In this document: positions 5,754 through 32,166 of the stretch, one piece after another
Layout: the number at the start of each line of letters is the position of its first letter
Numbering within the stretch: position 1 is the stretch's first letter
Source: an uncultured Acidimicrobiales bacterium
Lineage (GTDB): Bacteria; Actinomycetota; Acidimicrobiia; Acidimicrobiales; SHLQ01
Assembly (NCBI GenBank): GCA_938040365.1
Contig: CALHXU010000269.1
Span: 1 to 32,854 of the forward strand
Direction of reading: 5' to 3'
Length of the DNA: 32,854 bases
Program-made: the position numbers and the translations under genes
Notes under the pieces: generated by a model
What the model saw: the letters and a program-made list of their open reading frames with translations, nothing else
Databases searched by the model: none
What the model was told of the DNA's origin: nothing

Positions 5754-5789
5754 GTCGCCAAAGCTGTCGGCGAGGAACCGCGAGCAACT

Positions 5790-10120: not shown

Positions 10121-11905
10121 CTAAACCAAACGACCCCAACGCATGCACAAGGCACCGAGGGCAAACAGGACTGCTGACATCATCATCAGGAGCTTCCAAA
10201 CTTCGGAAGGACCAGTGAACGCCAGGACCGGCGCAGCTGCTGCACCTGATACCGGTGCTGCCGATGCGGTGTCGGTTGTATCTGTTGTGCTGTCGACCTG
10301 TGGAAGCACCGGAGCGGTGACGGTGATGCCTTCAACCTGGGCAACGATTTCGGTTGCCTCAACCGCTGGAGCGGTGGTTCCTGCAACCTCGTCAACAACG
10401 ACAACTTCTTCGGTGAGCGGTGGTGCGGTCTGCGCCGGAGCAGCGACCTCAACCGCGCCTTCGACGACGGTCGAAACCGGTGGTGCGGTAACTTCGACGG
10501 TCTCGATGACTACCTGTGGCACCTGGCAGCTCTGGCCGTCTTCGTAGCCAAATCCGTCGAAATCGGTGTCGGTTTCAGCCGATGCGCACACGGGGAATGG
10601 CACGGTGACTTCGACGTATTCGGTGATTGTTGGGTTGCCCGCTTCGAATACCTCGATGAACTCGGTGAGGACCTGGGTGACTTCGCAGGTTCGGCCGTCT
10701 TCGTAGCCGTATCCGTCGCCGTCTGGGTCTGAGTCGTCGAGTTGGCAGACCGGGTAGTTCACGGTGACTTCGACGAATTCGGTGACTGTTGGGTTGCCCG
10801 CTTCGAATACCTCGACGACTTCGGTGATGACCTGGGTGACTTCGCACGAAACGCCATTCTCGAAGCCGAATCCGTTTCCGTCTGGATCGCTTTCAGCCGA
10901 TTCACATACGGGGAACGGTACGGAAACGTTGACGGTTTCGGTAGTCGTTGGGTTGGTCTCGACGAAGACTTCGTTCACCTGGGTCAGTACCTGGGTGACT
11001 TCGCACGATGCGCCGTTTTCGTAACCGTATCCGTCGCCGTCTGAATCTGAGTCAGCTGATTCACATACTGCGAACGGCACCGTAACGTTGACCGTTTCGG
11101 TGGTTGTTGGGTTGGTCTCAATGAATTGCTCGACGGTTTCGACGAGTACTTCGGCAACTTCGCAGGATGCGCCGTTTTCGTAGCCGTATCCGTCGCCATC
11201 TGGATCTGAGTCATCGAGTTCGCAAACGGGGAGTGCAACTTGGACGGTCTCGGTGACGGTCACGGTCGGGTTGGTCTCGACGAAGACTTCGACGGTTTCG
11301 ACGAGTACTTCGGCAACTTCGCAGGATGCGCCGTTTTCGTAGCCGTATCCGTCACCGTCTGGGTCGGAGTCGTCAAGTTCGCAAACGGGGAGAGGAACCT
11401 GGACGGTCTCGACCGACCCTTCCTCGGTGAAGCAGACCGACGTAGCGAACAGCGAGTTAATGCCAAAGCCGATCTGAGCGTGCTCAACGGTCAGCGATGC
11501 GCTGTCTTCGATGACCTGGCCGGTAAAGACCGTCGTGATCTCGTTGACATCTTCTGGGATGTCGTCTGTTACTGGAGAGCGGTAACCCGAGTCGAGCACG
11601 ATGTGGAGTTGCTCTTCGAGCTGTGGCTCACCGCTAAACACGTCGTGTACGTCGCTCGTAACGACAGAGACGGTGTAGGTGCCAGCGTCGATTTCAACAT
11701 CGAATGGCCCCGCCGTAGGCGAGTTGTCGTTGTTGAGAAGCCGAGCGTTTCCGAGGTCGACGCTGAATGTACAGTCCGACTCTTGGGCACCGAGTGGCCC
11801 AGCGACCGTTGCAACGGTGCTGAGCAACAGCGTTGCTGCTGCTGCAGAAAAACACATTCGTGCGGCCCGATTTTCGGGCGCTCGAACGTCTTGGAGTATG
11901 GACAT
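10121..11905 (-). CDS. Cell-wall surface protein with six Cys/Asp-rich repeats and LAFTG sorting signal
   Basis: 594 residues with an AAGGAG ribosome site 7 bases before the ATG. A signal peptide (about 17-40) may be cut just before Gln41. Residues 41-173 form a head domain with three cysteines. Residues 174-475 hold five full 53-residue repeats plus one partial repeat. Each begins VC, has an acidic DSDPDGDGYGYENG-type motif that resembles calcium-binding DxDxDG loops, and a second cysteine about 21 residues after the first, then a Glu/Val/Thr stretch. After a Val/Ala/Pro/Thr region the C-terminus has LAFTG (561-565), a hydrophobic helix and a basic end (MRWGRLV): the layout of a sortase substrate, with LAxTG favoured by class E sortases of GC-rich Actinobacteria. 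Function is unknown; a stalk or adhesin is inference. Confidence 0.85.
   Translation of the reverse strand: MSILQDVRAPENRAARMCFSAAAATLLLSTVATVAGPLGAQESDCTFSVDLGNARLLNNDNSPTAGPFDVEIDAGTYTVSVVTSDVHDVFSGEPQLEEQLHIVLDSGYRSPVTDDIPEDVNEITTVFTGQVIEDSASLTVEHAQIGFGINSLFATSVCFTEEGSVETVQVPLPVCELDDSDPDGDGYGYENGASCEVAEVLVETVEVFVETNPTVTVTETVQVALPVCELDDSDPDGDGYGYENGASCEVAEVLVETVEQFIETNPTTTETVNVTVPFAVCESADSDSDGDGYGYENGASCEVTQVLTQVNEVFVETNPTTTETVNVSVPFPVCESAESDPDGNGFGFENGVSCEVTQVITEVVEVFEAGNPTVTEFVEVTVNYPVCQLDDSDPDGDGYGYEDGRTCEVTQVLTEFIEVFEAGNPTITEYVEVTVPFPVCASAETDTDFDGFGYEDGQSCQVPQVVIETVEVTAPPVSTVVEGAVEVAAPAQTAPPLTEEVVVVDEVAGTTAPAVEATEIVAQVEGITVTAPVLPQVDSTTDTTDTASAAPVSGAAAAPVLAFTGPSEVWKLLMMMSAVLFALGALCMRWGRLV
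10481..11386 (-). repeat. 159-bp tandem coding repeats of the surface protein
   Basis: Six units of 159 bp (53 codons) lie in register, the last partial. They start at residues 174, 227, 280, 333, 386 and 439. Units 1 and 2 are nearly identical in their first 30 codons, while units 4-6 have diverged, as expected from repeated duplication at one end of the array. Confidence 0.9.
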
Positions 11906-19004: not shown

Positions 19005-19067
19005 GAATGAGATTGTAACGCGGTCGGGTGACCAAAGGTTTATGGAGCTTTGGTCGATACTTACGGT

Positions 19068-20609
19068 ATGGATCGATGCAGTAATCAGTATCGGCGAGGG
19101 CGAATCCTCACGCTGATCATCCTCGGTGCGCTGGTACTTGCGGCGTGTGGCGCAACTGGGGACAGCGTTGCGCCTGAAGCGTCTGCCACTACTCCTGAGG
19201 ACGCAGCGGTCGAGGAGGCAGTTGAGTCGGGCGAGATCGACGGCGAGAGCGCAGCCACGAGTGCGGTCTCGTCCGATGACGATGACGATGACGACGGTGA
19301 GCCGACCGATGGCGACATCGACGCACAGGCGGATACTTCAGGAAGTGGCAGCGAAGAATCCAGCGCCGAAGCAAACGAAGCGACTGCGACCACCTCTACC
19401 CCGACAACGACAGTCGAGTCTGCCGATGCCGATCCTGATGCTGACGAAGGGGATTTCCAACCTTCAGAGGCATCGAATAGTGAGCCTGAAACCACTGCGC
19501 CCGCCGCTTCTGCTGAAGCCACCGAACCCGCGGATGGCCAAGACCAACAAACATCGACCGGTGATGCAGAGCTCGACCTGCTCATTGACGAACTCTCGGC
19601 ATTCGTCGAAGCCGAGCGGGGGCTGACCTTTACGAGTCGGCCCCAGATCGAACTGCTCGACAACGCAGAATTCGGCGAAGCCTGGCTTGAGTTGATCAAC
19701 GATGATGCGACTGAGAACGCCAGCGCCTACCGAAACTTCACCGACATCTACCGGGCACTCGGGATCATCTCGAACGACGCCGACCTCGAACAAATTTGGG
19801 CACGCTTCGGTGACGCCGGAGTGCTCGGCTACTACGAGACCGACAGTCAGGCGATTCGCCTTCGAAGCGGCGAGATCAACGCGTTGTCGAAGACGACGTT
19901 GGTGCACGAGTTGGTTCACGCCCTCGAAGATCAGAACTTCAACCTCGACCGCGAGTCGTACTCGGACCGCGACGATGAGATTGGATGGACGTTCTCAGCG
20001 CTCGTCGAAGGGTCGGCGCGAGTAATCGAAAACCGGTATCGCGCCACGCTTTCCGATGCCGAACGCCAAGAGGAACAAACAGCGATAGCGAACCTGCCCC
20101 GATCGGTCTCGTTCAGCGAATTCAACCAGTCGTTCCTCGAATTGCAGTTCGGCCGCTACAACTACGGCGAAGTATTCGCTAACGCGCTCTGGGCCCGGGG
20201 CCAATCCGCGGTCGACCAAGCCTTTTCGCAGCCACCGACAAGCTCTGAACAAGTGCTCGACCCGTCGAGCTATATCAACGGCGTGCAAGCCGATAGCCAA
20301 CTGAACCCACCACCTGCCGACGGCGCCGTGTTCGAAGACGGCGTTTTCGGTGAAGCAGCATGGATCGCCCTGCTCTCTGACACCGTCGCGACCTCAACCG
20401 CGATCGACCTCGCGAATGGCTGGGGTGGGGACTGGTTCGTTGCGTGGCGCGACGGAAGTACCACCTGTGTCCGCATCGACCTCGAAGCAGATTCACCAGC
20501 CGAACTCGCCGAATACGAATCCGCGCTACAGACGTGGACGAACGCCGGAAATGGCCGCGACCTCAGCGCGCCAACCACCGATGTTCTCCGCCTAACCGCC
20601 TGTCAATAA
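19068..20609 (+). CDS. Predicted HExxH (gluzincin-type) metallopeptidase lipoprotein
   Basis: 513 residues from the ATG giving MDRCSNQYRR; a TTG 18 bases upstream is an alternative. The signal peptide ends in a consensus lipobox LAAC (Cys27). About 140 residues of acidic, low-complexity linker follow, with eight aspartates in a row near residue 70. The globular domain begins about residue 168. LVHELVHALEDQNFNL places HELVH at 280-284, and ALVEGSARVIE puts a glutamate at 314, 30 residues after the second histidine, fitting zinc ligands His, His, Glu with catalytic Glu281. The combination HELVHALEDQ plus ALVEG recurs in bacterial secreted metallopeptidase-like proteins. The substrate is unknown. 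Confidence 0.8.
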   Translation: MDRCSNQYRRGRILTLIILGALVLAACGATGDSVAPEASATTPEDAAVEEAVESGEIDGESAATSAVSSDDDDDDDGEPTDGDIDAQADTSGSGSEESSAEANEATATTSTPTTTVESADADPDADEGDFQPSEASNSEPETTAPAASAEATEPADGQDQQTSTGDAELDLLIDELSAFVEAERGLTFTSRPQIELLDNAEFGEAWLELINDDATENASAYRNFTDIYRALGIISNDADLEQIWARFGDAGVLGYYETDSQAIRLRSGEINALSKTTLVHELVHALEDQNFNLDRESYSDRDDEIGWTFSALVEGSARVIENRYRATLSDAERQEEQTAIANLPRSVSFSEFNQSFLELQFGRYNYGEVFANALWARGQSAVDQAFSQPPTSSEQVLDPSSYINGVQADSQLNPPPADGAVFEDGVFGEAAWIALLSDTVATSTAIDLANGWGGDWFVAWRDGSTTCVRIDLEADSPAELAEYESALQTWTNAGNGRDLSAPTTDVLRLTACQ

Positions 20610-20741: not shown

Positions 20742-21221
20742 CTAGACCGGGGTGCCCTTGTAGGGAGCAGGATCTTTCGGACCTGGGAGCGTGAGTTCGC
20801 TCCAACCAACCTGAGTCGCGAGTGAGTCGATCACCGCTCGCCAGCCAACGGGGTCCCAACCTTCGCTCGACGCTGCGATCGTTCCATCCTGTTTGACGAG
20901 TACAAGCGCTGGGAGGGTCGAAAGGCCGAGGGCCTTAACCGCAACGCGGTCCGGGTCCGAAAAGGTCAGGTGCTCCTCGCCGTACGGGCCAAGAAAGGAC
21001 TTCACACCATCGGCGGGACCAGCGGCCAGCCATGCCACACGGACCCCAGCGCCCGAATAGTGATGAAAGATGCGCTTTGTCGTGTCGAGCAACCACGATG
21101 ACTCGTGGGTGTACGGATCGATTACGCCAAGGAGCAACGGGAAGGTCGTCAACCAGTCCGAGAAAGGTCGAGCATCACCGTTGATCGGGTCGAGATCTGG
21201 ATCACCGTCAAGAGTTTCCAC
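20742..21221 (-). CDS. Thioredoxin-fold protein lacking cysteines
   Basis: 159 residues from the GTG giving VETLDGDPDLDPING. A longer version starting at GTG 21293 adds 24 residues of non-protein-like sequence and would overlap the divergent gene start. The fold is suggested by PLLLGVIDPYTHESSWLLDTT where the active site would be, VAWLAAG as the central strand, the cis-proline loop STLPALVLVKQDG and a C-terminal helix ending VIDSLATQV. The CxxC is replaced and there is no cysteine at all in the 159 residues, so it cannot be a thiol oxidoreductase. A structural or binding role is more likely. No family name is offered. Confidence 0.75.
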   Translation of the reverse strand: METLDGDPDLDPINGDARPFSDWLTTFPLLLGVIDPYTHESSWLLDTTKRIFHHYSGAGVRVAWLAAGPADGVKSFLGPYGEEHLTFSDPDRVAVKALGLSTLPALVLVKQDGTIAASSEGWDPVGWRAVIDSLATQVGWSELTLPGPKDPAPYKGTPV

Positions 21222-21287
21222 GGGCGAAACGGTAGCTGCTTTTTCACTGCATCGTGCGGTTCGCGCGACTACTGATACCGTCGAAGC

Positions 21288-21992
21288 GTGCACCCAATTG
21301 AGCGACTTCGCTATGTAGCCCGTGCCGGGACAGCGCCAGATACGTTTCTCGTTGCCGAATCTGTACCCGCGTTCGCGGCGTTTGCCCGAAACCCCAACGC
21401 CATGCTCGTGTCGTTAAAGGGGCTCATCTCACGCCAGCCCGAGTCTCCAGGGCTACTTTGCCTCGCTGCACGAATGGTGCATTCGCTCGACGCCGTTGCC
21501 GCCGGCTGGGAATTCGCCGACGCAATGGAACTCGACCGAACCAACGACATTGCAGAGACCATCGCCATCACCGAAGCCGGCGGGACCGACGTGATCGATT
21601 CGGTCGCAACCGGCCTCGACGGGGAAACTGGTGAGTTGGTGGCACTCTGCCCCGCAGGGACCATGGCCTGGATCGAAGCCGCACGCGAGGGCGGGCGGTC
21701 GGTTGCCATCGTCACGCCGATGGGCACGCGTCTCCCGTCGATGTTGTGGGAGCGATTCAAACGGGTCCACCCGCGCGTCGCAGCGCTTGAAGGGTCCAGT
21801 TCCGCGCTGGAAGAGCCCAGTTCCACGCTGGAAGAGTCCAGTTCCACGCTGGAAGTATCCAGTTCTGTGTTGGGTGAGTTCGAATTGATCCCAGCGTCAT
21901 CTTTCGATGACGTGATTGGGCCCGACGGACTTACGCCGCTCGATGGGTGGCGACCGGATTGTCCAGATGTAGCCGAAGTTGCTCGCTTCTGA
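21288..21992 (+). CDS. Hypothetical protein with internal heptad repeat
   Basis: 234 residues from GTG. Not recognised with confidence. The N-terminal half is helical and Ala-rich (FAAFARNPNAMLVSLKGLIS, LCLAARMVHSLDAVAAGWEF). The middle has Rossmann-like alternation (LVALCPAGTMAWIEAAREGG, SVAIVTPMGTRLP), loosely like eIF-2B/sugar-phosphate isomerase-like folds; that comparison is weak. Residues 167-194 are four seven-residue repeats of the type LEESSST, then the chain resumes with FELIPASSFDDVIGPDGL and ends PDCPDVAEVARF. Its last 62 bases overlap the end of the convergent DegT-like gene. The promoter must lie in the 66 bases between this start and 21221. Confidence 0.75.
   Translation: MHPIERLRYVARAGTAPDTFLVAESVPAFAAFARNPNAMLVSLKGLISRQPESPGLLCLAARMVHSLDAVAAGWEFADAMELDRTNDIAETIAITEAGGTDVIDSVATGLDGETGELVALCPAGTMAWIEAAREGGRSVAIVTPMGTRLPSMLWERFKRVHPRVAALEGSSSALEEPSSTLEESSSTLEVSSSVLGEFELIPASSFDDVIGPDGLTPLDGWRPDCPDVAEVARF
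21787..21870 (+). repeat. Four 21-bp tandem repeats within the gene at 21288
   Basis: Units at 21787, 21808, 21829 and 21850, of the form TGGAAGAGTCCAGTTCCACG plus C. Units 2 and 3 differ at a single base. They keep frame and encode LEGSSSA, LEEPSST, LEESSST and LEVSSSV. Confidence 0.92.
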
Positions 21993-23307
21993 CGTCGACC
22001 GCCGGAGCGAGGTCGATGACCGCTGCTGACTTTGGGTCTGGCGGGTTCGTGATTGCATCGAGGAAGCTCGCAATCACCCGCTCGTGATCGAGCCTGGTCA
22101 TTCCCGACCCGCTCGGTAAGCACAAACTGCTCGCAGCGTGCGCCTCGGAGGCTCCGCCGCCGATCACCGTCGCGTCCACAAAGCGGGTTTGGCGGTGCAG
22201 CGGCAACTCCACAGGTCGCGCCTCGATCCCATCTTTTGCCATGTGTGCACAAATTTGGGAGGGGGTCGGCAGTCGGTTCTGGTCGATAGTGACAACCGAC
22301 TGCGCCCCGTTACCCACGCCGTCGCGGTCGATGTCGATGAGCGAGACTCCAGGGAGCATGGAGAGGACCTCGGCATAGCGACGATTGATCTGGCGGGTCC
22401 GCCCCATCAGCTCGACGAGTCGGTCGAGGTGCGCGCAACCAAGCGCCGCGAGCAGGTTCGGGAGGCGGTAGCCGTAGCCGAGTTCGTGCTGCTCAAACGC
22501 TCGTGTTTGATCTGCCCTGCAGCCGGCGAGGCGGCGGGCGCGTTCGATCATGGGCCGCGGTCCAACAAGGGCGCCACCGGCCTCGCTGCTGATCAGTCCA
22601 CTACCGGCAAAGTTGAACGCGGCGAGCGTCCCAAAGGATCCAGCTGCGCGTCCGCCGTGAGTAGAACCGAGCGACGTTGCGCCGTACTCGAGGAGAGGAA
22701 CGCCGTAGTTCGCGCAGATCGCTTCGATCCGTGAATAGTCGGCGCATGAACCATAGAGATCAGCGGTGATCACCGCCGCTGGCGTGCGATAGCTGTTCGC
22801 CAGTCCGCGGAGACCAAGATCGAGAAGGTGCGGGTCGATATTTCCCGTGGACGGATCGCAATCGATAAATATCGGGATGGCCCCGACGTGGCGAACGGCA
22901 TTGGCTGTTTCGACCTGAGAAAGCGCGGGGACGAGCACGATGTCGCGGCGTCCAACGCCGAGAAGAATGAGTGCGAGATGCAGCACGGACGCCCCGCTGA
23001 GCAAGGCCACGGCATCGCCGGTCCCGGCAACGCCGGCGAGCTTTGACTCGAACTCAGTCACGGCGGACTGAGTGGGAGCGCCCGAGTTCTCGTCGAACGC
23101 AGCGAGCAGCGCATGGCGCTCAGCATCGCCAAGGTCGGGCGTTGAAAGCAAGACTGGTTTGATCGAGTCATCCTCAGCAACATGAGCCGGTCGGTAACCG
23201 ACGTGGCCTTCCACGTTCGTCGTCACCTTGCCTGATGCATGCGCTGGTGCACGCACGGGTCGCGGCGTGTCGGTTTGATCCGCCTGTAGTCCTTTTGAAT
23301 CAGCCAT
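21931..23307 (-). CDS. DegT/DnrJ/EryC1/StrS-family protein without catalytic lysine (pseudo-aminotransferase)
   Basis: 458 residues from the ATG giving MADSKGLQAD with AGGGAG 4 bases upstream; the frame continues upstream to 23622, but the added sequence is antisense to mutY and not protein-like. Family landmarks are in order: SGASVLHLALILLGV (104-118), VETANAVRHVGAIPIFIDCDP (132-152), DLYGSCADYSRIEAI (183-197), GYGYRLPNLLAALG (277-290). In sugar aminotransferases the PLP aspartate lies in EDAA and the Schiff-base lysine in FSFxxxKN. Here they read EYGA (Tyr208) and FNFAGSG (Gly237), so both residues are gone while the surroundings align without gaps. An N-terminal extension of about 50 polar residues is unusual. 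It is probably not an aminotransferase; a dehydratase-like or binding role is possible. Confidence 0.88.
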   Translation of the reverse strand: MADSKGLQADQTDTPRPVRAPAHASGKVTTNVEGHVGYRPAHVAEDDSIKPVLLSTPDLGDAERHALLAAFDENSGAPTQSAVTEFESKLAGVAGTGDAVALLSGASVLHLALILLGVGRRDIVLVPALSQVETANAVRHVGAIPIFIDCDPSTGNIDPHLLDLGLRGLANSYRTPAAVITADLYGSCADYSRIEAICANYGVPLLEYGATSLGSTHGGRAAGSFGTLAAFNFAGSGLISSEAGGALVGPRPMIERARRLAGCRADQTRAFEQHELGYGYRLPNLLAALGCAHLDRLVELMGRTRQINRRYAEVLSMLPGVSLIDIDRDGVGNGAQSVVTIDQNRLPTPSQICAHMAKDGIEARPVELPLHRQTRFVDATVIGGGASEAHAASSLCLPSGSGMTRLDHERVIASFLDAITNPPDPKSAAVIDLAPAVDVRSEQLRLHLDNPVATHRAA

Positions 23308-23368: not shown

Positions 23369-24265
23369 GTGGTGACCCGAGCGAGAAACGACAACGAATT
23401 TGCTCCGTTTGCTTCCGATGGTGTCGCGGCGGTAGTTGGGTGGTGGAGCGAGGAAGCGAGAGATCTACCGTGGCGCAAGACCCGAGACCCGTGGCTAGTG
23501 CTCGTGAGCGAGGTCATGTCCCAACAAACCCAGGTCGATCGAGTGATCCCAAAGTGGCACGCGTTTATCGAGCGCTTCCCGACTCCGGCAGACGCAGCCC
23601 GTGCCCCGGCGAGCGTGATCATCTCAATGTGGGACGGATTGGGCTACAACCGTCGAGCGCTCATGCTTCATAACTGCGCGACGAAAATATCGACAGACCA
23701 TGACGGCATCGTCCCTAACGAGCTCGACGAGTTGCTCGCCCTGCCCGGAATCGGCCCGTACACTGCACGAGCAATTCTGGCGTTCGCGTTCGAAGATGAC
23801 GTTGGGGTTCTCGACACAAATGTTGGGCGGGTGCTCGCTCGAGTATGCGGTCGAGCGCTGAAGCCACGAGACGCACAACTGGTCGCCGACATGGTGGTGC
23901 CCGTCGGGAAGAGTTGGGAATGGAACCAAGCGCTGCTCGACTTCGGCGCGCAGATTTGCCAAAAGCGGACTCCGCGGTGTTCGCAGTGTCCGGTTCGTGG
24001 TGTTTGCACCTGGGCCGGGACCGGCCCGGACCCAGCCGTTGGCTCGGCCGGCGTCGGAGTTGCGCAAACCAAATTTGTCGGGTCGGATCGACAAGGGCGA
24101 GGAAAGCTCGTGTCTCGTCTGCGGGCTGGTCCGCTTCGGGCAGAATCTGCGAGGGACGTCATGGGCTTTGCCGATGACCCTGACCGATCCGAGCGCGTGC
24201 TCGCTTCGCTCCTCGCCGATGGACTCGTCGTTTCGACCGGCGACGAACTTCATTTGCCCGAATAG
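23369..24265 (+). CDS. mutY: A/G-specific adenine glycosylase
   Basis: 298 residues from GTG (a second GTG follows directly). DNA base-excision repair enzyme that removes adenine opposite 8-oxoguanine. The catalytic glutamate is E48 in SEVMSQQTQVDRV, the helix-hairpin-helix is LPGIGPYTA (125-133), the catalytic aspartate is D149 in VLDTNVGR, and the [4Fe-4S] ligands are C197-x6-C204-x2-C207-x5-C213. The length and the lack of a clear NUDIX-like C-terminal domain resemble short actinobacterial MutY proteins. It is divergent from the DegT-like gene, with 61 bases between the two starts. Confidence 0.93.
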   Translation: MVTRARNDNEFAPFASDGVAAVVGWWSEEARDLPWRKTRDPWLVLVSEVMSQQTQVDRVIPKWHAFIERFPTPADAARAPASVIISMWDGLGYNRRALMLHNCATKISTDHDGIVPNELDELLALPGIGPYTARAILAFAFEDDVGVLDTNVGRVLARVCGRALKPRDAQLVADMVVPVGKSWEWNQALLDFGAQICQKRTPRCSQCPVRGVCTWAGTGPDPAVGSAGVGVAQTKFVGSDRQGRGKLVSRLRAGPLRAESARDVMGFADDPDRSERVLASLLADGLVVSTGDELHLPE

Positions 24266-24459
24266 ATCGCCAGTTTCGGCCCTGTCCCACCGTCGTTTCG
24301 CGCACGGAAGCAAAAGGCGACTCATCCCGACGATCCGGCCGTTTCGGCGCGTCAATTACGTCACACGGCTTATAGCGCGCACCCCCTTCGCCGTTAGTGT
24401 CTACATAGGCGTTGCGGGTCGAAAAGTGCCCGGACGACGGTGAGGAGGTCCGAGCTCGA

Positions 24460-25293
24460 ATGAAGTCAGCTGATGTGAACGTCTCGTTCTACGGCGTTCG
24501 CGGCTCCACTCCGTGTCATTGCTCCTCAATGAATCGCTTCGGCGGAAACACATCGTGTGTCGTCGTTCAACGGCAGGACGAAGATCCGATCATTCTCGAT
24601 GCCGGTACAGGTCTACGCTTCTTCGGCCTCGACTCTGGTCTCGACCACTTCAGCGGCACGGTGCTCGTCACCCACCTGCATTGGGATCACATTCAGGGCC
24701 TACCGTTCTTCCCCCAGCTGCTCCATCCAAACTCGACCGCCACCGTTATTGGGCCTCCTGAGAAAGATGCGTCGTTCGGCGACGCACTGACCGCATTTGT
24801 TCGGCCACCGTATTTCCCAGTCGGTATCGACGTGCTTCCTGGCAAGATCGAGCTGATCGATCTCTGGGAAGAATCGACCTCGGTAGCTGGAGCGACCGTA
24901 ACGACCCGACCAGTTCCCCACCAGGGCCGCACAAATGGGTATCGCATCGAATGGCCCGACTTTTCGCTCGCGTACATCCCCGACCATCAACAACCCGAAG
25001 ATTCGACCTTCGTTGATCCCGGAGTGCTCGAGTTGGCAAACGGTGTCGACCTGCTCATCCACGACAGCCAGTTCACCCCCGAGCTGTTGAAGAAGCGCCA
25101 GGACTGGGGCCACTGCACCCCCGAGTACGCGGTGCACGTTGCCCAGTTAGCCGGAGCGTCGACGCTGTGCCTGTTCCATCACGATCCGCTGCACAACGAC
25201 GACATGCTCGACGGAATCTTCGCCGACCTGATGTCGACCGAAACGGGCTGCGAAATTGTTCCTGCTGCCGAAGGAATGAAGCTCAGCTTCTAA
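24460..25293 (+). CDS. MBL-fold metallo-hydrolase
   Basis: 277 residues from the ATG giving MKSADVNVSFYGVRGS, with GGAGG 11 bases upstream (24444-24448). The zinc motif is THLHWDHIQG (HxHxDH at 72-77). Further ligands are expected at VPHQGRT, IHDSQF and LFHHDP. The GVRGSTP start and GGNTSCVVV segment are typical of the MBL subgroup related to PhnP and RNase Z that is often annotated as cyclic phosphodiesterase-like; the substrate cannot be assigned. The 194 bases between mutY and this gene hold no supported gene and probably its promoter. Confidence 0.88.
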   Translation: MKSADVNVSFYGVRGSTPCHCSSMNRFGGNTSCVVVQRQDEDPIILDAGTGLRFFGLDSGLDHFSGTVLVTHLHWDHIQGLPFFPQLLHPNSTATVIGPPEKDASFGDALTAFVRPPYFPVGIDVLPGKIELIDLWEESTSVAGATVTTRPVPHQGRTNGYRIEWPDFSLAYIPDHQQPEDSTFVDPGVLELANGVDLLIHDSQFTPELLKKRQDWGHCTPEYAVHVAQLAGASTLCLFHHDPLHNDDMLDGIFADLMSTETGCEIVPAAEGMKLSF

Positions 25294-25324: not shown

Positions 25325-26488
25325 TTAGCGACGGTGTCGGTGCGCAATCGCTGACACGTAAGCGTGCTCATGGACCTCAGCGGTCCGAGCCGGAGCGTAG
25401 CGTTCGTCGAGTTCGGCAGCGAGCAGTTTCGCGCCGAACAGTTCTTCGTCGTGGTGCTCGCTAACCATCGTCATGAGCTTGCCCAGTTGCTCTGGGTCGC
25501 CGGTTGGGTAAAGGCGTCGGCCGTCAATCCCATCGTTGGTGTTGAGAATCTCGCGATGTGGCGGGATGTCGCTCGCCAGAATCGGCAAGGCCGCACGGCC
25601 AGCCTCGATGAGGGCAGTCGGCAAACCTTCGAGGTGCGACGACGTAATGAAGCCGCCAGCATTGGTCAGAATCTCTGCGAGTTCGTCGCCATAGAGCGGG
25701 CCGGTGAGGATGATGTTTGGATCATCTGCGGCGAGCTCGTTGAGGTGGTCAACGTAGGACTCGGTTCCCGCTGCGCCACCGACGATCACCAATGGCATGT
25801 CGGTCATTGCATGGTGGTACGCCGTGATCGTCTCGTGAGGCGCCTTCTCGGGAACGAGGCGACCAACAGAAACAAAGTAGTTGTGCTGGAGCAAGCCGTA
25901 GCGGGCGAGAGTTTCACCGGGCGCCTTGCCAGAAATGGCGTGGGTCGAGTTCGGCACGACCGTGGTGGTCCGTCGGAACTCATCGGCGTACTCTTCTGCG
26001 AGCGTTTCAGAAACGACGAGCGTGCTGTGGGGAACACGTGCGCTCATCGAAGCAGCGACTCGAAGCAATGCCCGGACGCCTCGGCTCCACTTGTCTCGTT
26101 TGTCGTCTCGACCGTGAACGGTCACGAGGACGGTCGACTTCGTAGCAAGGCGCGAAATTAGCGCCATCATGCCCGGGCCGAGCGCATGGAAATGAATGAC
26201 ATCAAAGCCGCGCCCAATGCAGTACAGCGCAGCCCGAAAGGCGTGCAGTAATGCGCCAACGCCAGGAGAAGTTGAAGCCGACAGGTAGACGAGGCGAACG
26301 CCGTCCATCATCGGCGGGTGCGTTTCGTAATCTTCCGACCGGCAAAACACCGTGACTTCATGTCCGCGCAACACGAGCTGGCGAGCAAGAACATCGACGA
26401 CGGTTTCAACGCCGCCGTAGTTCGCTGGCATCCCGCGCGTACCGATCATCGCAATACGAAGACTGTCATTCGTGCGACGTTTGATCAT
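25325..26488 (-). CDS. Glycosyltransferase family 4 (GT-B fold)
   Basis: 387 residues from ATG. The N-terminal domain has MIGTRGMPANYGGVETVVDVLARQL, the start typical of DUF1972-type GT4 enzymes such as rhamnosyltransferases. The C-terminal donor-binding domain has VSVGRLVPEKAPHETI, DDPNIILTGPLYGDELAEIL and the EX7E-type motif in SSHLEGLPTALIEAG. It is expected to transfer a hexose or deoxyhexose from a nucleotide sugar to a lipid-linked glycan on the cytoplasmic face. It is the last gene of the polysaccharide locus, separated by 137 bases from the gamma-carbonic-anhydrase-like gene, and may have its own promoter there. Confidence 0.9.
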   Translation of the reverse strand: MIKRRTNDSLRIAMIGTRGMPANYGGVETVVDVLARQLVLRGHEVTVFCRSEDYETHPPMMDGVRLVYLSASTSPGVGALLHAFRAALYCIGRGFDVIHFHALGPGMMALISRLATKSTVLVTVHGRDDKRDKWSRGVRALLRVAASMSARVPHSTLVVSETLAEEYADEFRRTTTVVPNSTHAISGKAPGETLARYGLLQHNYFVSVGRLVPEKAPHETITAYHHAMTDMPLVIVGGAAGTESYVDHLNELAADDPNIILTGPLYGDELAEILTNAGGFITSSHLEGLPTALIEAGRAALPILASDIPPHREILNTNDGIDGRRLYPTGDPEQLGKLMTMVSEHHDEELFGAKLLAAELDERYAPARTAEVHEHAYVSAIAHRHRR

Positions 26489-26515
26489 TGTTGGCCCACC
26501 TGTGTGTTACGCATC

Positions 26516-26541
26516 AGGACCCCAAAGTACGACAGGGTCCT
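26516..26541. other. Hairpin in the leader of the GT4 gene
   Basis: AGGACCC (26516-26522) and GGGTCCT (26535-26541) form a 7-bp stem, about 30 bases before the GT4 start on the minus strand. There is no T-run, so an attenuator or mRNA-stabilising role is only a guess. Confidence 0.35.
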
Positions 26542-26576
26542 TTGCGTCGGGAGGGGGCACACGACCCGTTGGTGGC

Positions 26577-26590
26577 AGGTCAAATGACCT
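26577..26590. promoter_or_regulatory. Dyad-symmetric site, possible operator
   Basis: AGGTCA-AA-TGACCT, a perfect 6+6 inverted repeat with a 2-base spacer, lies in the gap between the gamma-carbonic-anhydrase-like gene and GT4. Its size suits a dimeric regulator, but no regulator gene is nearby. Confidence 0.3.
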
Positions 26591-26625
26591 ATCAAGCTCT
26601 GTGGGCGCGGGTGTTGTTGCACAGC

Positions 26626-27147
26626 TCAGTCGATTCGTCGCATCGACGTTTTGTAGCGGGTGAGCCGCTCGACGTAGTTGTCGGCGAACATCAGGTTTAT
26701 CTCTTCGGAATTGGCGTCTTCGCGAATCTTTGCGGGCACTCCGAGGGCCATTGCATTGGCTGGGACCACCTTGCCGCCTGCTACGACAGCGTTTGCGCCA
26801 ACCAGAGCGCCGCTCGAAATGACGGCGCCGTGCAAGATGACCGAACCGCTGCCAGCCAACGCAAGGTCTTCGAGCGTGCAACCTTCGAGGTGGGCGTTAT
26901 GACCAATAGTGCAATTGGCGCCGACCGTCGTTGGATGGTCGGTCGTGCAGTGGAGGACCGCACCGTCTTGGACCGAGGTTCGGGCCCCGATACGAATCGT
27001 ATTGTCGTCGGCTCGAATGACCGTGCCTGGCCATACCGAGGAGAACGGTCCCAAGATGACGCGACCGATGAGCGTCGCCTCTGGATGCACAAATGCATCG
27101 GGGTGAATCTCGGGTTCCCAGCCGCTCTCGAGAGCATAAATCGCCAT
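26626..27147 (-). CDS. Gamma-carbonic-anhydrase-like left-handed beta-helix protein
   Basis: 173 residues from the ATG giving MAIYALESGW. Hexapeptide-repeat turns run from residue 20 to 140 (FVHPEATLIGRVILGPFSSVW, VQDGAVLH, TTVGANCTIGHNAHLEGC, ALVGANAVVAGGKVVP) and a C-terminal helix follows. In gamma carbonic anhydrases three histidines bind the metal, in VLH, GH and LHG. Here H66 and H83 are present, but the third position, five residues after H83, is Glu88, with a histidine at 86. It may bind metal differently or act as an acyltransferase-like scaffold. It lies 78 bases downstream of GT2 on the same strand. A longer frame to 27285 overlaps GT2 and is rejected. Confidence 0.85.
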   Translation of the reverse strand: MAIYALESGWEPEIHPDAFVHPEATLIGRVILGPFSSVWPGTVIRADDNTIRIGARTSVQDGAVLHCTTDHPTTVGANCTIGHNAHLEGCTLEDLALAGSGSVILHGAVISSGALVGANAVVAGGKVVPANAMALGVPAKIREDANSEEINLMFADNYVERLTRYKTSMRRID

Positions 27148-27224
27148 TGCCCAGAGCGTAGTTGGGATAGTGGATTGTCTCAAGGCGCGCTGTCGGGGCC
27201 GCACCCCGTCACGCTCCGTGGTAT

Positions 27225-28124
27225 TTACCAGCCTCGAATGAGCCGCGTTGGTTGCTTGAGCTTCTTTGCGATGACCGCCATGCACTTGATCTGGTCGGTA
27301 GTTGAGGGGTTTGCTCGACGGACGCCGTTGACGTACCCCTTCAGAACTTGGCTCGCAAACGAGAGGTCTTGGGCGCCGTGCTCCTTCAGTTCTTCGAAGT
27401 TGAGCCCGTTGCGCCCTGAGTTCTTCGCGTGACTGCGCGAAGCAAAGAGTGCTTCGGGGACTTTCACAAAGCGACCGCGCATCGCCATCTCGACGAGCAG
27501 GGTGCGGTCGCCGCCATAGAAGGAGCCGTGGAGGCGGGTCTTCATCATCACGTCTCGTCGCATGATTCCAAAGATGAAGAAGTTGCGGTGATTGTTGTTG
27601 ATCACGGCATCGATTCGCTGGTGCGGCGCATTGGATCCAAAGCGGTCATCGCCCGGTGGCGGCGTCAGCTTGATCGCTTCTAAGTATCCGTCTCCGCCGA
27701 GGTAACCCTGATCCATCTCGAGCATGGCGTTGCTCGCCGGGTCGATAAGCAGGCTCTCAGAGTGGCCAATGACAATGCTTGGGTCGGCGTCCATCATCGA
27801 CACGACCGCAGACAGATAGCCGGGTTCGATGCGGTCATCGGCAGCAGCCCAGCGAAACAGATCGCCGTTCGTCAATCGAAAGAGTCGGTTGAAGTTCGCT
27901 GGCCCACCGATGTTGCTGTCGTTGCGTGTGTAGGTGACGCGGTCGTCTTGTGCGGCGAGTTCATTGACGATGTCTGGCGTTGCGTCGGTCGAGCAGTTGT
28001 CCGAGACAACCAGTTCGAAGTCGCCGAAGTCTTGCTCGAGGTGGCTCGTGATCGCCTCGTGGATGTAGTCGGCGCCGTTGTACACGGGCACGCCAATAGA
28101 CAGTTGTGCCATGGTGTTGTTCAC
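27225..28124 (-). CDS. Glycosyltransferase family 2
   Basis: 299 residues from a GTG overlapping the previous stop as GTGA; an ATG four codons later is an alternative. The GT-A fold is shown by LSIGVPVYNGADYIHEAI, the nucleotide-binding VVSDNCSTDATPDIV, NIGGPANFNRLF and the DXD-like AADDRIEPGYL. The late half (YGGDRTLLVEMAMRGRF) fits processive or single sugar transfer of the EpsH/WcaA style. It is expected to add a sugar to the lipid-linked repeat unit in the cytoplasm. Translationally coupled to the O-antigen ligase gene. Confidence 0.9.
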   Translation of the reverse strand: MNNTMAQLSIGVPVYNGADYIHEAITSHLEQDFGDFELVVSDNCSTDATPDIVNELAAQDDRVTYTRNDSNIGGPANFNRLFRLTNGDLFRWAAADDRIEPGYLSAVVSMMDADPSIVIGHSESLLIDPASNAMLEMDQGYLGGDGYLEAIKLTPPPGDDRFGSNAPHQRIDAVINNNHRNFFIFGIMRRDVMMKTRLHGSFYGGDRTLLVEMAMRGRFVKVPEALFASRSHAKNSGRNGLNFEELKEHGAQDLSFASQVLKGYVNGVRRANPSTTDQIKCMAVIAKKLKQPTRLIRGW

Positions 28125-29680
28125 TGAACCTTGGTTGCAGTTGGGGAGTGTCCCGATCCTGTCGGCAGTTCAAGGCGCGTTGTTGAACCGCCGTCTGGGT
28201 ATTCGTGGGTTGCATCGGGCACCTCGGTGCGGCGTGCTCCCCAGGTGAGGTAGGCAACGTGCGCGAACGCAATGTTGAGGTACCACCAGACGATCGTGTT
28301 GAGCAGCACGTTTTCGGTGATGAGCTGGGCTGCGACCGAGAGCAATCCGGCGATCGAGCCGGCGCTGATGACTGCGGTTTGACGGTCGAGCTCGCCGTTC
28401 TTGGCCTTCTTCCAGACCTTGATAGCGGCATAGGTGGCGACGCCGAGAAGGGTGAAGAAACCAATGGCGCCGAGGATTCCGCCCTCGAGGTACGCCTGGA
28501 GGAGGCTGTTGTGGGGGTCCTTCGCCTCGGGGGTTTGGGTCTTCGTGGCGTCGATGCCGATGCCGCTTACGGGGTTCTGTGAGGTGAATGGCCAGATGCG
28601 CTCCCAGTAACCGAAGCGCCATCCGAGCGAGTCATCGGTCTTTGGGGCGCCGTTTGGTCCGGTCGACGCGGTGAGGTTAGCGAGGCGGTCGCCGACGCCG
28701 GGAACGACGGCCGCTACGGCGAACGATCCAACGATGATGAGGCCGACGAGCTTCTTGTTGATGCGAGCTGCGAGCAACAACGCGCCGATAAGGAAGCTCG
28801 CCCACGCCCCGCGGGCGAAGGTCGCAATGAGGAGGAAGCCGCCGAGTCCGGTCGCAATGATGAGGCCGAGGCGAGCTTTCACCTCGAGTGTCGGAATGAC
28901 CGACAGGCCGATGAGTACGGCGAAACCGAGGTAGGTCGCGAACGTGTTTGGGTGGGCGAACGACCCGTCGATACGGACAAGACCCGAACCGCCAGGGTCG
29001 AGCGTGCCGGTGAAGAAGAACTGGACGAACCCGGTGACGAGCGGAACGAACATGCCGATGGCCGAGGCTGCGAGCAGGCGGATCAGGTTTTTGCGATCGT
29101 CGAGGAGTTGTTGCTCCATAGCCACGTACAACAAGACGACCGAGGCGAGGCCGAACATCGCAGCTTGGGAGACGCCGCGGTCGACCGAGGTTAGGAAGCT
29201 CGGCACGAACAGAACAAAGAACGCGACGAAGGCATAACCAAGCGGCGTTAGGCGGTGCCAGTTGCCGGTGAGTCGGCGGCTTACGAGGTGGGCAGCGGTG
29301 ACCAAGATGGCGAGAATGCCGAGGATTGCCGACGGTTGGAACGTTCCGAACTGGTCGGCGATGAGATCGTCGAGCGACGGGCGGATTGCGAGGGTGATGA
29401 GGAGGAACCACTGGTACCGGTAGAGGCCGATGATTGCGAGGATCATCGCCGACAGCAGCGTGCCGCCGAGAATCACAAAGGGCGTGTCGGGGGAGAGGGC
29501 CTGGAACGCAAACGCGCCACCGATTCCAACGATGGTCGCAACGAGTAAGACGAAGAGCGCCGCTGGGCCGGGGTTTGGCAGGGGCGCCTGGTCGGTTTCG
29601 ATTTCCTCTTGTTCGCGCCGAATCGAAATCCGGTCTTCGTGAGCAGCGAGGTGCTCCCGGCCAAGATCAGAGATCGTCAC
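28121..29680 (-). CDS. O-antigen ligase/polymerase family membrane protein (Wzy-like)
   Basis: 519 residues from a GTG that overlaps the sulfotransferase stop as GTGA, which decides the start over a longer frame to 29737. A polar N-terminus of about 35 residues leads into 10 or more hydrophobic helices. The Wzy_C-type core includes SFAHPNTFATYLGFAVLIGLS, ARGAWASFLIGALLLAAR and a large extracytoplasmic loop (VGDRLANLTASTGPNGAP to the PHNSLLQAYLEGGILG motif) carrying the conserved HNS. It probably polymerises or ligates repeat units outside the membrane. It sits in an operon with the chain-length determinant, sulfotransferase and GT2. Confidence 0.9.
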   Translation of the reverse strand: MTISDLGREHLAAHEDRISIRREQEEIETDQAPLPNPGPAALFVLLVATIVGIGGAFAFQALSPDTPFVILGGTLLSAMILAIIGLYRYQWFLLITLAIRPSLDDLIADQFGTFQPSAILGILAILVTAAHLVSRRLTGNWHRLTPLGYAFVAFFVLFVPSFLTSVDRGVSQAAMFGLASVVLLYVAMEQQLLDDRKNLIRLLAASAIGMFVPLVTGFVQFFFTGTLDPGGSGLVRIDGSFAHPNTFATYLGFAVLIGLSVIPTLEVKARLGLIIATGLGGFLLIATFARGAWASFLIGALLLAARINKKLVGLIIVGSFAVAAVVPGVGDRLANLTASTGPNGAPKTDDSLGWRFGYWERIWPFTSQNPVSGIGIDATKTQTPEAKDPHNSLLQAYLEGGILGAIGFFTLLGVATYAAIKVWKKAKNGELDRQTAVISAGSIAGLLSVAAQLITENVLLNTIVWWYLNIAFAHVAYLTWGARRTEVPDATHEYPDGGSTTRLELPTGSGHSPTATKVQ

Positions 29681-30624
29681 GCCGCAGAACCTGTATCGGT
29701 TTCGGGGGCCGGGCCGAAGGCGAGCGGGTAACCCCATCGGGTCAGATGTGAGGCAAGTTCGGCTTCGAGCTGGCGTTGCTGTAGCTCGGTGAGGTCACGG
29801 CGCCACTTGTCGTTCGTGTTGCGGAATCCAAAATCGATGACCGAGGTGTTGAATTCGTCGGTGTAGTCGAGCGAGCAGAAGTTCGTCACAAGCTCAAAGG
29901 TACCCGTTGGATCGTCACAAAGGTCTTCGTACCTAATCTCCATGAATTGTTCGCTCGGAACGAGCGGGGCTGCCTCGACCATGGCATCGAACATGTCGGC
30001 GAGTTCCATTGCCCCGAGGGTGACGAACGACTTTCCGCTCTCGTCCCAACGCTGCTGCTGATCTGGGGTCATGTCGAGGCCACGCCAGCCCTTCGTGCCT
30101 TTCCATCCTTCCCAGAAGTCGATCTGCATGATCGAGTTCACGACCGCTCGACCGTCGCGCACCACATGGATGAATCGTGCGTCGGGGAAGGCTTCGAGGA
30201 GGTAACCCATTCGGGGCCAGCCGGTGATCTTGATGAGCGGGGTTGGACGGCCGGGGACGACCAGTCGGTCGACGGCTGCGTTCAGGTTGGCCTTGGTACG
30301 TTCGGTGAGGTCGGTCGCTACGAGGTCGCGGAACGGTTCACTAAATCCAGGGGCAATGCGTTCCCAATAGGCGTAGGCCTCGCTGGGCTTAAGGTGGCCG
30401 GGTTCGATGACGCCACGCTTTAGGGCCGCGCCCAAGACGGGCGAGTCGAGGCCTTGAAGCAGCGCAGCATTGAGGCGTTCTGCCTTTGGTGAAACATCGA
30501 GAATCTTCGACACCCACGAAACGTTTTGGTGCCGGGCAAAGCAATGGTGGAAGGCGGTTGAACCGCTCCGACCAGCGCCCACGATGAAGATCGGAGGATT
30601 TGGTGACTCGCTACTGGAGGACAT
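29677..30624 (-). CDS. Sulfotransferase family protein
   Basis: 315 residues. The 5'-phosphosulfate loop is FIVGAGRSGSTAFH (13-26) and the 3'-phosphate motif is IHVVRDGRAVVNS, which together define PAPS-dependent sulfotransferases. Later landmarks such as FMEIRYEDLCDDPTGTFE also fit. The expected role is transfer of sulfate from PAPS to a sugar hydroxyl. Position between the chain-length determinant (2 bases upstream) and the polymerase (4-base overlap) argues that the polysaccharide or its lipid-linked unit is sulfated, which is inference. PAPS synthesis genes are not in the window. Confidence 0.92.
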   Translation of the reverse strand: MSSSSESPNPPIFIVGAGRSGSTAFHHCFARHQNVSWVSKILDVSPKAERLNAALLQGLDSPVLGAALKRGVIEPGHLKPSEAYAYWERIAPGFSEPFRDLVATDLTERTKANLNAAVDRLVVPGRPTPLIKITGWPRMGYLLEAFPDARFIHVVRDGRAVVNSIMQIDFWEGWKGTKGWRGLDMTPDQQQRWDESGKSFVTLGAMELADMFDAMVEAAPLVPSEQFMEIRYEDLCDDPTGTFELVTNFCSLDYTDEFNTSVIDFGFRNTNDKWRRDLTELQQRQLEAELASHLTRWGYPLAFGPAPETDTGSAA

Positions 30625-30626
30625 GT

Positions 30627-31907
30627 TCAGCCTGCTTTGGTGCTTGCTTCTCTACCCCACCGGCCGTCTTTCGAACGCTTCTTGTTCTTCTTGTTCGACG
30701 GCGGTTCATCGTCGTCATCGTCGCTGGACGCTTCTTCGACGAGGTCTTCTTGGTCCTCTTTCGCAACGACATCGATGATGTCTTCGTCGACGGCCAGAAT
30801 GTCGGTTTCCTGTGCTTCGTCGACGACGGTGAGCGGACGGCGGATGGTCGATTCGGGGAGTGCCCGCTGTGGGGCGGGTTCGATTTCGCCAGCGGCATCG
30901 AATTCTTCGACGGGAACGTGTTCGGTCTTTGCGCCTCGTCCTCGGATGAGGTCGAAGATCGTGAAGATCAAGATCATGAGCAACGCGACCGGAACGGCGA
31001 AGATGAGCAGGCCGGTGAGGAGCCCGGAGATCTTCGAGGTCTCTTCGGTCTCGACCTGGCGGATGACGAGCGAGGTTTCTCGTTCGGTCTCGATCAGCGT
31101 GATCGCTGACTCAAGTTCACGGATCGAGTTGTCGCGAGCCGAGAGGGTGCCGTTGACCTGGTCCTCTTGGACTCGCAGCGAGGTGAACTCGCGAGCGATT
31201 GGTGAAAGCTCGTTTACGACGTCTTCGAGTTCGTCGGCGGTTGGGCCGGTGAGCTCAACTTGCTGTTCGGTAATGGTGCCGTCGGGTCCGACGACGTTCT
31301 CGGTCGGCGGGTTGATCTCGTCCGCGCGTCGCTGCAAGAGCGCAGCTTCGGCATTGTCGAGTGCGTTCGTCGGGTTGATACCCCCGGACAGGACCGTGAG
31401 TTCGGCGATTCGAGAGTCGATCTCGGCAACGTCGGAGAGCAGCTGGTTGCGACTCGATTCGACACCGGCGATTTGGCGATCGATCGTAAGCGAGACCGCT
31501 TCGATACCCGTCTCGATGGCAACGTTGTTGGCATCGTTTGGATCGTCTGCGACGACGTTGATGTTGATGTTTGCGCCGCCGCCTTGGTTAACGACGAGGT
31601 CATAGTCGTCTTCGATGATGAGGCCGGTGCGTTCCTGCACGGCTTGTTCAACCTCAGGGAAAGATGCGGTGCTGACGATTTGTTCGACGACGAGGCCAAG
31701 CTCGCCTGCGGTGATGTCGTTATCGGACACCAAGCTTGCGTTCAGTACGTATCGAGCCTGGAACTGTGGCGGTTCTTGCAGCGCAAGAAAGACACCGGCA
31801 GCACCAGCGAGTCCGGCGACGAGGGCCAAAATGAGTGGTCGCCAGCCAGTGAGATGAAGGAACGAAGAGAGTTCCCCACCTGAGCTGTCTATTTGGCCTT
31901 GCGTCAT
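30627..31907 (-). CDS. Polysaccharide chain-length determinant (Wzz-like) without kinase domain
   Basis: 426 residues from the ATG giving MTQGQIDSSG, with GAGGAAAG upstream; the frame back to 32033 adds unlikely sequence. A first membrane helix (about 22-43, LILALVAGLAGAAGVFLALQ) and a second one near 302-326 (GLLTGLLIFAVPVALLMILI) flank a periplasmic-type domain with long coiled-coil helices (SRNQLLSDVAEIDSRIAELT, RDNSIRELESAITLIETE). The cytoplasmic tail of about 95 residues is acidic, with five aspartates in a row, then Lys/Arg-rich. No Walker motifs follow, so the BY-kinase part is absent or separate. First gene of the polysaccharide operon. Confidence 0.85.
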   Translation of the reverse strand: MTQGQIDSSGGELSSFLHLTGWRPLILALVAGLAGAAGVFLALQEPPQFQARYVLNASLVSDNDITAGELGLVVEQIVSTASFPEVEQAVQERTGLIIEDDYDLVVNQGGGANININVVADDPNDANNVAIETGIEAVSLTIDRQIAGVESSRNQLLSDVAEIDSRIAELTVLSGGINPTNALDNAEAALLQRRADEINPPTENVVGPDGTITEQQVELTGPTADELEDVVNELSPIAREFTSLRVQEDQVNGTLSARDNSIRELESAITLIETERETSLVIRQVETEETSKISGLLTGLLIFAVPVALLMILIFTIFDLIRGRGAKTEHVPVEEFDAAGEIEPAPQRALPESTIRRPLTVVDEAQETDILAVDEDIIDVVAKEDQEDLVEEASSDDDDDEPPSNKKNKKRSKDGRWGREASTKAG

Positions 31908-32166
31908 CGTTGAGTCTTTCCTCACCCGCTGTATCGACACCTTATTTCCGCAACCACTCGCCGCGTTAATCGGTCGTGTGTAAATTTCGTTACGGATTTT
32001 GAGCGTGAATTCGTTTGTGTGCTCTCCGTCCACAATAAATCAGTTTCGTACTGCATTGTTGGGCAGGAAGGCCCGGTTTCGCTGGGAAAAGGCCTAGGTG
32101 GCTGCGTCATCTGACACACCGTTGACCGATTGAGGGAACGCACCGAGGTATGGAGCACGCAACGGG
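31908..32166 (-). promoter_or_regulatory. 259-base leader region of the polysaccharide operon
   Basis: No coding sequence supported. The part next to the operon (31940-32060) is noticeably A/T-richer than its surroundings, as expected of a promoter or long 5' leader. I could not choose convincing -35/-10 boxes and recognise no known riboswitch. A GGGTCACCC-type element near 32165 may help terminate the upstream gene. Confidence 0.45.

What the first reader, a model, noticed from the sequence alone, without database searches (positions are those of the whole stretch)
21931..23307. DegT/StrS-family protein lacking both PLP lysine and PLP aspartate
The fold landmarks of sugar aminotransferases are all present in order, yet the Schiff-base Lys position in FSFxxxKN is Gly237 (FNFAGSG) and the Asp of EDAA is Tyr208 (EYGA). 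The alignment around both sites is gap-free, so this is substitution rather than misalignment. Known exceptions such as ColD replace Lys by His but still use PLP or PMP chemistry. Losing both residues suggests a pseudoenzyme or new activity. It lies near a polysaccharide locus and carries a 50-residue polar N-terminal extension.
Basis: partly seen in the sequence, partly recalled or inferred. Interest (0 to 1): 0.65.

Follow-up and report, generated by a model that had tools for sequence, protein, structure and literature searches.

The report
Dead sugar aminotransferase in dismantled pathway
In one species of an uncultured bacterial genus, an enzyme that normally adds an amino group to a surface sugar has lost its whole active site, and the rest of its pathway is deleted or dead too, yet the gene is still an intact, full-length coding sequence.

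Summary
The gene (minus strand, 23307..21931, 458 aa) is a DegT/DnrJ/EryC1/StrS homologue with Gly237 and Tyr208 where the PLP lysine and aspartate belong. It is the syntenic orthologue of a PglE-type UDP-4-keto-sugar aminotransferase (nearest solved structures: C. jejuni PglE). All 10 genus relatives and the other close homologues examined keep both residues, so the loss is confined to this lineage. It is not two point changes: 40 of 136 residues invariant in the genus are gone (controls 2%), including four of the five ligand contacts shared by Pcryo_0638, PglE and DesI. No lysine lies between residues 89 and 358.

The explanation is outside the window. The upstream PglF-type 4,6-dehydratase of the same genome is also active-site dead and truncated in frame. 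pglD was not found, and pglC is missing from the syntenic place. The amino-sugar pathway has been dismantled in this lineage. Both dead genes keep open frames. The aminotransferase has no indel in its core and family-like substitutions at tolerant sites, which favours retention as a pseudoenzyme over simple decay; the statistics are moderate. A new activity is neither supported nor needed. No function of the retained protein is shown.

The parts
21931..23307 (-). PglE-type (DegT/DnrJ/EryC1/StrS) aminotransferase homologue, 458 aa, active site lost (A106, Y208, N232, G237)
23167..23307 (-). N-terminal 47 residues, polar, predicted disordered, variable in relatives
22684..22686 (-). codon of Tyr208 at the position of the PLP-pyridine aspartate (EDAA -> EYGA)
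   Evidence: coordinate counted from ATG 23307
22597..22599 (-). codon of Gly237 at the position of the Schiff-base lysine (SFNGNK -> NFAGSG)
   Evidence: coordinate counted from ATG 23307
21934..22047 (-). C-terminal tail (residues 421-458), mostly predicted disordered, shared with the sister species; its last ~20 codons overlap the convergent gene 21288-21992
25325..32033 (-). neighbouring surface-polysaccharide genes (GT4, hexapeptide protein, GT2, O-antigen ligase type, sulfotransferase, unknown), syntenic across the genus
23369..25293 (+). divergent mutY homologue and MBL-fold gene lying between the aminotransferase and the polysaccharide genes, also in the genus relatives

Best explanation
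The gene is the vertically inherited, syntenic orthologue of the genus's PglE-type aminotransferase. In relatives this enzyme probably converts the UDP-4-keto-6-deoxy-HexNAc made by the PglF-type dehydratase into the 4-amino sugar that PglD acetylates and PglC loads onto a lipid carrier (inferred from families and gene order). In this lineage the pathway was dismantled: pglD and pglC are missing from their place, PglF became a truncated, active-site-dead protein, and PglE lost its PLP and sugar pocket. It cannot work as a PLP aminotransferase. The protein is most likely still made and kept as a catalytically dead fold, a pseudoenzyme, with a structural or protein-contact role (partner unknown). 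Shown here: orthology, loss of the catalytic residues, parallel loss in PglF, no PglD found, intact frame, and substitutions at tolerant sites more family-like than neutral drift gives. Inferred: the sugar product, that the protein is expressed, and any retained role.
For: Orthology and lone loss: same gene order in the 10 genus relatives; all close homologues examined have the canonical Lys and Asp. Acceleration in this gene only: protein branch 0.69 vs 0.10 in the sister, while six concatenated control genes give 0.23 vs 0.24. Genus-invariant residues lost: 40/136 vs 22/1089 in eight control genes. Ligand residues conserved in Pcryo_0638, PglE and DesI are Thr60, Asp156, Ser180, Lys185, Asn239 (PMC8040287); the first four correspond to A106, Y208, N232, G237 here. 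Pathway: every genus relative has a PglF-type dehydratase at 322-347 bits; this genome has one at 214 bits with TDK -> SCT and GYTKR -> GYTES; PglF uses Thr-Asp-Lys (PMC8987622). PglD_N is in 10/10 relatives and not found here. On contig C71 the dead pglF adjoins genes that in the sister lie several kb away on both sides. Retention: no stop and no indel in the core; neutral drift to the same loss leaves a stop-free frame in 3% of runs (aminotransferase) and 0.3% (pglF); tolerant sites keep family residues at 0.657 vs 0.568 +- 0.031 under drift, P = 0.001. Branch omega 0.07, 2dlnL 24 against omega = 1. Fold predicted with pLDDT >= 90 for 314 residues and matched to sugar aminotransferases.
Against: No expression or binding data and no known partner. 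Synonymous sites are saturated, so omega averages functional and post-loss time. pglF substitutions at variable sites look neutral (P = 0.63). The stop-free test for the aminotransferase alone is only P ~ 0.03. A predicted fold from an alignment of active relatives does not prove folding. The genome is 90.7% complete, so absence of pglD elsewhere is not certain.
Confidence: 0.58

Rival explanations
1. Decaying pseudogene: after loss of the pathway the gene drifts without selection and by chance still has an open frame.
For: The pathway is gone and the gene is strongly accelerated; many invariant residues are lost; pglF substitutions at variable sites fit neutral drift; the stop-free probability for the aminotransferase alone is about 3%, so not excluded.
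Against: Both pglE and pglF are stop-free (3% and 0.3% under drift), the pglE core has no indel against 10 relatives, the large pglF deletions are in frame, and pglE tolerant sites keep family-like residues (P = 0.001).
Confidence: 0.28
2. The protein has gained a new, PLP-independent enzymatic activity on a related sugar nucleotide.
For: Predicted fold and frame are kept and evolution is fast; 96 of 136 genus-invariant residues remain, including His110, Arg281, Asn284, Glu362, Arg364, His371.
Against: Residues of conserved motifs presumed to line the substrate pocket (W75, Q263-R265, H270, H273, W367, M370) are also lost; the enzyme that would feed it is dead; no relative shares the new residues.
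Confidence: 0.07
3. The protein is an inactive partner subunit that pairs with a canonical DegT enzyme of the same genome, as LCB1 pairs with LCB2 in serine palmitoyltransferase.
For: A canonical DegT gene lies on C129 beside a sugar transferase gene; fold-type I sugar aminotransferases are dimers; dead/active pairs are known elsewhere (PMC3794620).
Against: C129 is only 31% identical and belongs to another cluster; similar distant DegT genes occur in relatives whose PglE is canonical (by similarity only); nothing shows interaction.
Confidence: 0.05
4. Sequencing or assembly artefact of a draft genome.
For: The genome is a 277-contig draft.
Against: Normal synteny and normal neighbouring genes, GC3 as in the sister, open frame with about 160 amino-acid differences from the sister in the aligned core, and a parallel loss on another contig.
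Confidence: 0.01

Closest known systems
PglE (C. jejuni; PDB 4ztc, 1o61) and B. subtilis EpsN: UDP-4-keto-6-deoxy-GlcNAc aminotransferases
   Same: Best sequence match among solved structures (E 7e-44), same fold, and in relatives a PglF/PglD/PglC gene set in the genome
   Different: Schiff-base Lys, pyridine Asp, the conserved Thr and Ser and many pocket-motif residues absent
ColD / DdhC-type dehydratases (PMP-dependent DegT relatives, Lys -> His)
   Same: DegT fold without the lysine
   Different: To my knowledge they keep the Asp and bind PMP; here both are lost and no His replaces the Lys
LCB1/SPTLC1 of serine palmitoyltransferase
   Same: PLP-fold protein that lacks the PLP lysine (PMC3794620)
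   Different: Widely conserved in eukaryotes with a known active partner; here a single lineage with no known partner
Orthologous aminotransferase of the sister species (G004, L012)
   Same: Syntenic orthologue, 59% identical, C-terminal tail shared
   Different: Canonical EDAAES and SFNGNK motifs

Membership tests
DegT/DnrJ/EryC1/StrS family (Pfam PF01041) | Profile match over nearly the whole domain | tested here: met
   201.3 bits, profile 19-358 of 360, cut-off 19.8
DegT/DnrJ/EryC1/StrS family (Pfam PF01041) | Fold-type I aminotransferase fold | tested here: met
   AlphaFold2 model mean pLDDT 82; Foldseek TM (target) up to 0.94 to sugar aminotransferases; a prediction, built on an alignment of active relatives
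PglE-type UDP-4-keto-sugar aminotransferase (enzyme) | Lys forming the internal aldimine | tested here: not met
   Gly237
PglE-type UDP-4-keto-sugar aminotransferase (enzyme) | Asp contacting the PLP pyridine nitrogen | tested here: not met
   Tyr208
PglE-type UDP-4-keto-sugar aminotransferase (enzyme) | Other conserved ligand residues (Thr60, Ser180 of Pcryo_0638) | tested here: not met
   Ala106 and Asn232
PglE-type UDP-4-keto-sugar aminotransferase (orthologue by descent) | Syntenic place shared with canonical PglE-type genes of the genus | tested here: met
   gene order conserved in 10 relatives; tree places it as sister to G004
TIGR04181 LegC family aminotransferase | Score over the curated cut-off of 420 bits | tested here: not met
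   213 bits
Functional diNAcBac-like pathway | Active PglF, PglD and PglC in the same genome | tested here: not met
   PglF active site lost, PglD_N not found, syntenic pglC missing; genome 90.7% complete
Pseudoenzyme (retained, non-catalytic) | Coding sequence under selection after loss of catalysis | tested here: inconclusive
   stop-free P 0.03 (pglE) and 0.003 (pglF); tolerant-site P 0.001 for pglE but 0.63 for pglF
Pseudoenzyme (retained, non-catalytic) | Absence of PLP binding and activity in the purified protein | not testable with these tools
   needs protein

The most novel reading that the evidence does not exclude
Two consecutive enzymes of one sugar-nucleotide pathway, a membrane-anchored PglF-type dehydratase and the PglE-type aminotransferase, encoded at separate loci, were both converted into retained pseudoenzymes in the same lineage, perhaps kept as a scaffold or regulator of the remaining surface-polysaccharide machinery.
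Probability: 0.3. Interest if true: 0.6.

Novelty: new variant of a known kind. Interest (0 to 1): 0.42.

Why it matters
If the dead protein is truly kept, it is a bacterial DegT-family pseudoenzyme with canonical orthologues in sister species at the same locus, and it is paired with the same fate in the preceding enzyme of the pathway. That would let one test whether pathway enzymes have structural roles apart from catalysis. Practically, family-level annotation of this genome would wrongly predict a working amino-sugar pathway.

Tried and rejected
Plus-strand reading of the interval: rejected, full of stops. Longer 563-aa frame: rejected as antisense to mutY. Lysine elsewhere filling the pocket: none between residues 89 and 358. 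Second canonical PglE copy in the genome: none close. The genome-contig scan with the single protein found only two distant homologues, both canonical. The first codon-model script failed for a technical reason and was repeated; its omega values are weak evidence because synonymous sites are saturated. Reading the nearby hexapeptide protein (26626-27285) as PglD was dropped: it matches gamma-carbonic-anhydrase-like models better, and PglD_N was not found anywhere in the genome. Searches for a described DegT pseudoenzyme in the held papers found none. Promoter scan of the region found nothing.

Full report
What is there. The interval 21931-23307 encodes, on the minus strand, a 458-aa protein. 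A ribosome-binding-like AGGGAG precedes ATG 23307; the longer frame to 23622 runs antisense through the divergent mutY homologue and is not credible. The protein matches PF01041 with 201 bits over the domain and the LegC-type model TIGR04181 with 213 bits, half of that model's cut-off. Among solved structures the best sequence match is C. jejuni PglE (4ztc, 1o61). The AlphaFold2 model has a core with pLDDT of 90 or more for 314 residues, disordered ends, and matches sugar aminotransferases.

Gly237 and Tyr208 fall exactly on the Schiff-base lysine and the pyridine aspartate. In the alignment of some 35 homologous sequences every close one has the NGNK lysine and the Asp, including the 59%-identical sister L012. 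A study of Pcryo_0638 lists the five ligand residues conserved among Pcryo_0638, PglE and DesI: Thr60, Asp156, Ser180, Lys185, Asn239 (PMC8040287). By motif the first four correspond to Ala106, Tyr208, Asn232 and Gly237; the fifth is probably Asn284, retained (my inference). So four of five are lost. Of 136 columns invariant in the ten genus relatives, 40 are changed here, against 22 of 1089 in eight neighbouring control genes. The protein has no lysine between positions 89 and 358.

It is a lineage-specific loss in a true orthologue. The neighbourhood (unknown - sulfotransferase - O-antigen ligase - GT2 - hexapeptide - GT4 / MBL - mutY / aminotransferase - unknown - and on to a helicase) has the same order in the ten genus relatives, as far as their fetched stretches reach; one gene (20742) is on the other strand in two of them. 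On the species tree the protein branch of this gene is 0.69 in the window genome and 0.10 in the sister, whereas six concatenated controls give 0.23 and 0.24. The own genome has no close second copy.

Why it happened. In the sister G004 a second locus carries epimerase - PglC-type transferase - PglD (PglD_N + hexapeptide) - PglF-type dehydratase - DUF4012 - unknown - UDP-sugar dehydrogenase; hit positions show PglC, PglD and PglF types close together in the other relatives too. A PglF-type enzyme makes the 4-keto sugar, the aminotransferase aminates it and PglD acetylates it (PMC8040287, PMC8987622). Every genus relative has a PglF-type dehydratase at 322-347 bits; the window genome has only a 214-bit one on C71. 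That protein lacks most of the N-terminal membrane and CoA-binding region, its catalytic TDK has become SCT, the Lys of Yx3K is Glu, and KHLPLLE is SRSSQVL, while TGAGGSVG is kept. PglD_N is found in 10/10 relatives and not here; a search with the sister's PglD finds only weak hexapeptide matches. On C71 the dead pglF lies between an epimerase-like DUF1731 gene and a GT4 gene whose sister orthologues are several kilobases away on either side. The neighbours, pglC and pglD among them, are therefore missing inside an assembled contig, not in an assembly gap. The window genome's sugar transferases that I compared are at most about 40% identical to the sister's PglC, while the relatives' copies are 55%. 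I conclude that this amino-sugar pathway was dismantled in the lineage.

Pseudoenzyme or decay? Starting from the sister's codons, neutral drift to the same loss of invariant residues gives on average 3.9 stops in 389 codons and a stop-free frame in 3% of runs; variable positions would keep family residues at 0.568 +- 0.031, against 0.657 observed (P = 0.001). There is no indel in the roughly 370-residue core that is particular to this copy. For pglF the stop-free probability is 0.3%, but its variable positions look neutral (P = 0.63). A branch codon model gives omega 0.07 for pglE and 0.19 for pglF, both below 1 (2dlnL 24 and 9), but synonymous sites are saturated and the branch includes time before the loss. 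These lines favour selection on the reading frame after loss of catalysis, without proving it. They were several tests chosen along the way, not one planned test, and the neutral model assumes a base composition (0.58-0.60 GC) and a kappa of 2. The C-terminal tail is shared with the sister, but its last 20 codons overlap the convergent gene 21288-21992, which may explain that part.

How it most likely works. The committed reading is a dead fold kept for contacts (structural or regulatory), with a partner that I cannot name; the polysaccharide enzymes of the same locus and the equally dead, membrane-anchored PglF are the obvious candidates. This last step is inference only.

Relation to the known. 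By descent it is a PglE-type DegT protein; as an enzyme it fails the defining tests of the family. ColD-type proteins are not a model for it because, from my own knowledge, they keep the Asp and PMP chemistry. LCB1 of serine palmitoyltransferase is a precedent for a PLP-fold protein without the lysine kept as a partner (PMC3794620), but no partner is indicated here. I found no described DegT pseudoenzyme in the held papers, which is a limited library.

Verdict. Real, explained to a good degree, and of moderate interest: loss of the aminotransferase active site is close to certain; its cause, loss of the pathway, is well supported; whether the dead protein still does something is open.

Noticed in passing
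L065 (G000:C71) 4902-6329 +: PglF/WbpM-type dehydratase of the same genome is also active-site dead (TDK -> SCT, K320 -> E) with large in-frame N-terminal deletions; frame open.
   Followed up: yes
window 21288-21992 +: Gene without a Pfam match, conserved in all 11 genus genomes, overlapping the 3' end of the aminotransferase gene antisense by 59 bases.
   Followed up: partly
window 20742-21293 -: Unknown gene, no Pfam match, conserved in the genus but with the opposite relative strand in two genomes (L046, L048), a possible local inversion.
   Followed up: no
window 19050-20609 +: Weak DUF6782 and Hvo_1808-family surface protein matches; only the part from about residue 162 on is shared with relatives.
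   Followed up: no
window 10121-11905 -: 594-aa protein whose CBM_10 and DUF5110 matches have no stretch passing on its own, so probably repeats or low complexity rather than true domains.
   Followed up: no
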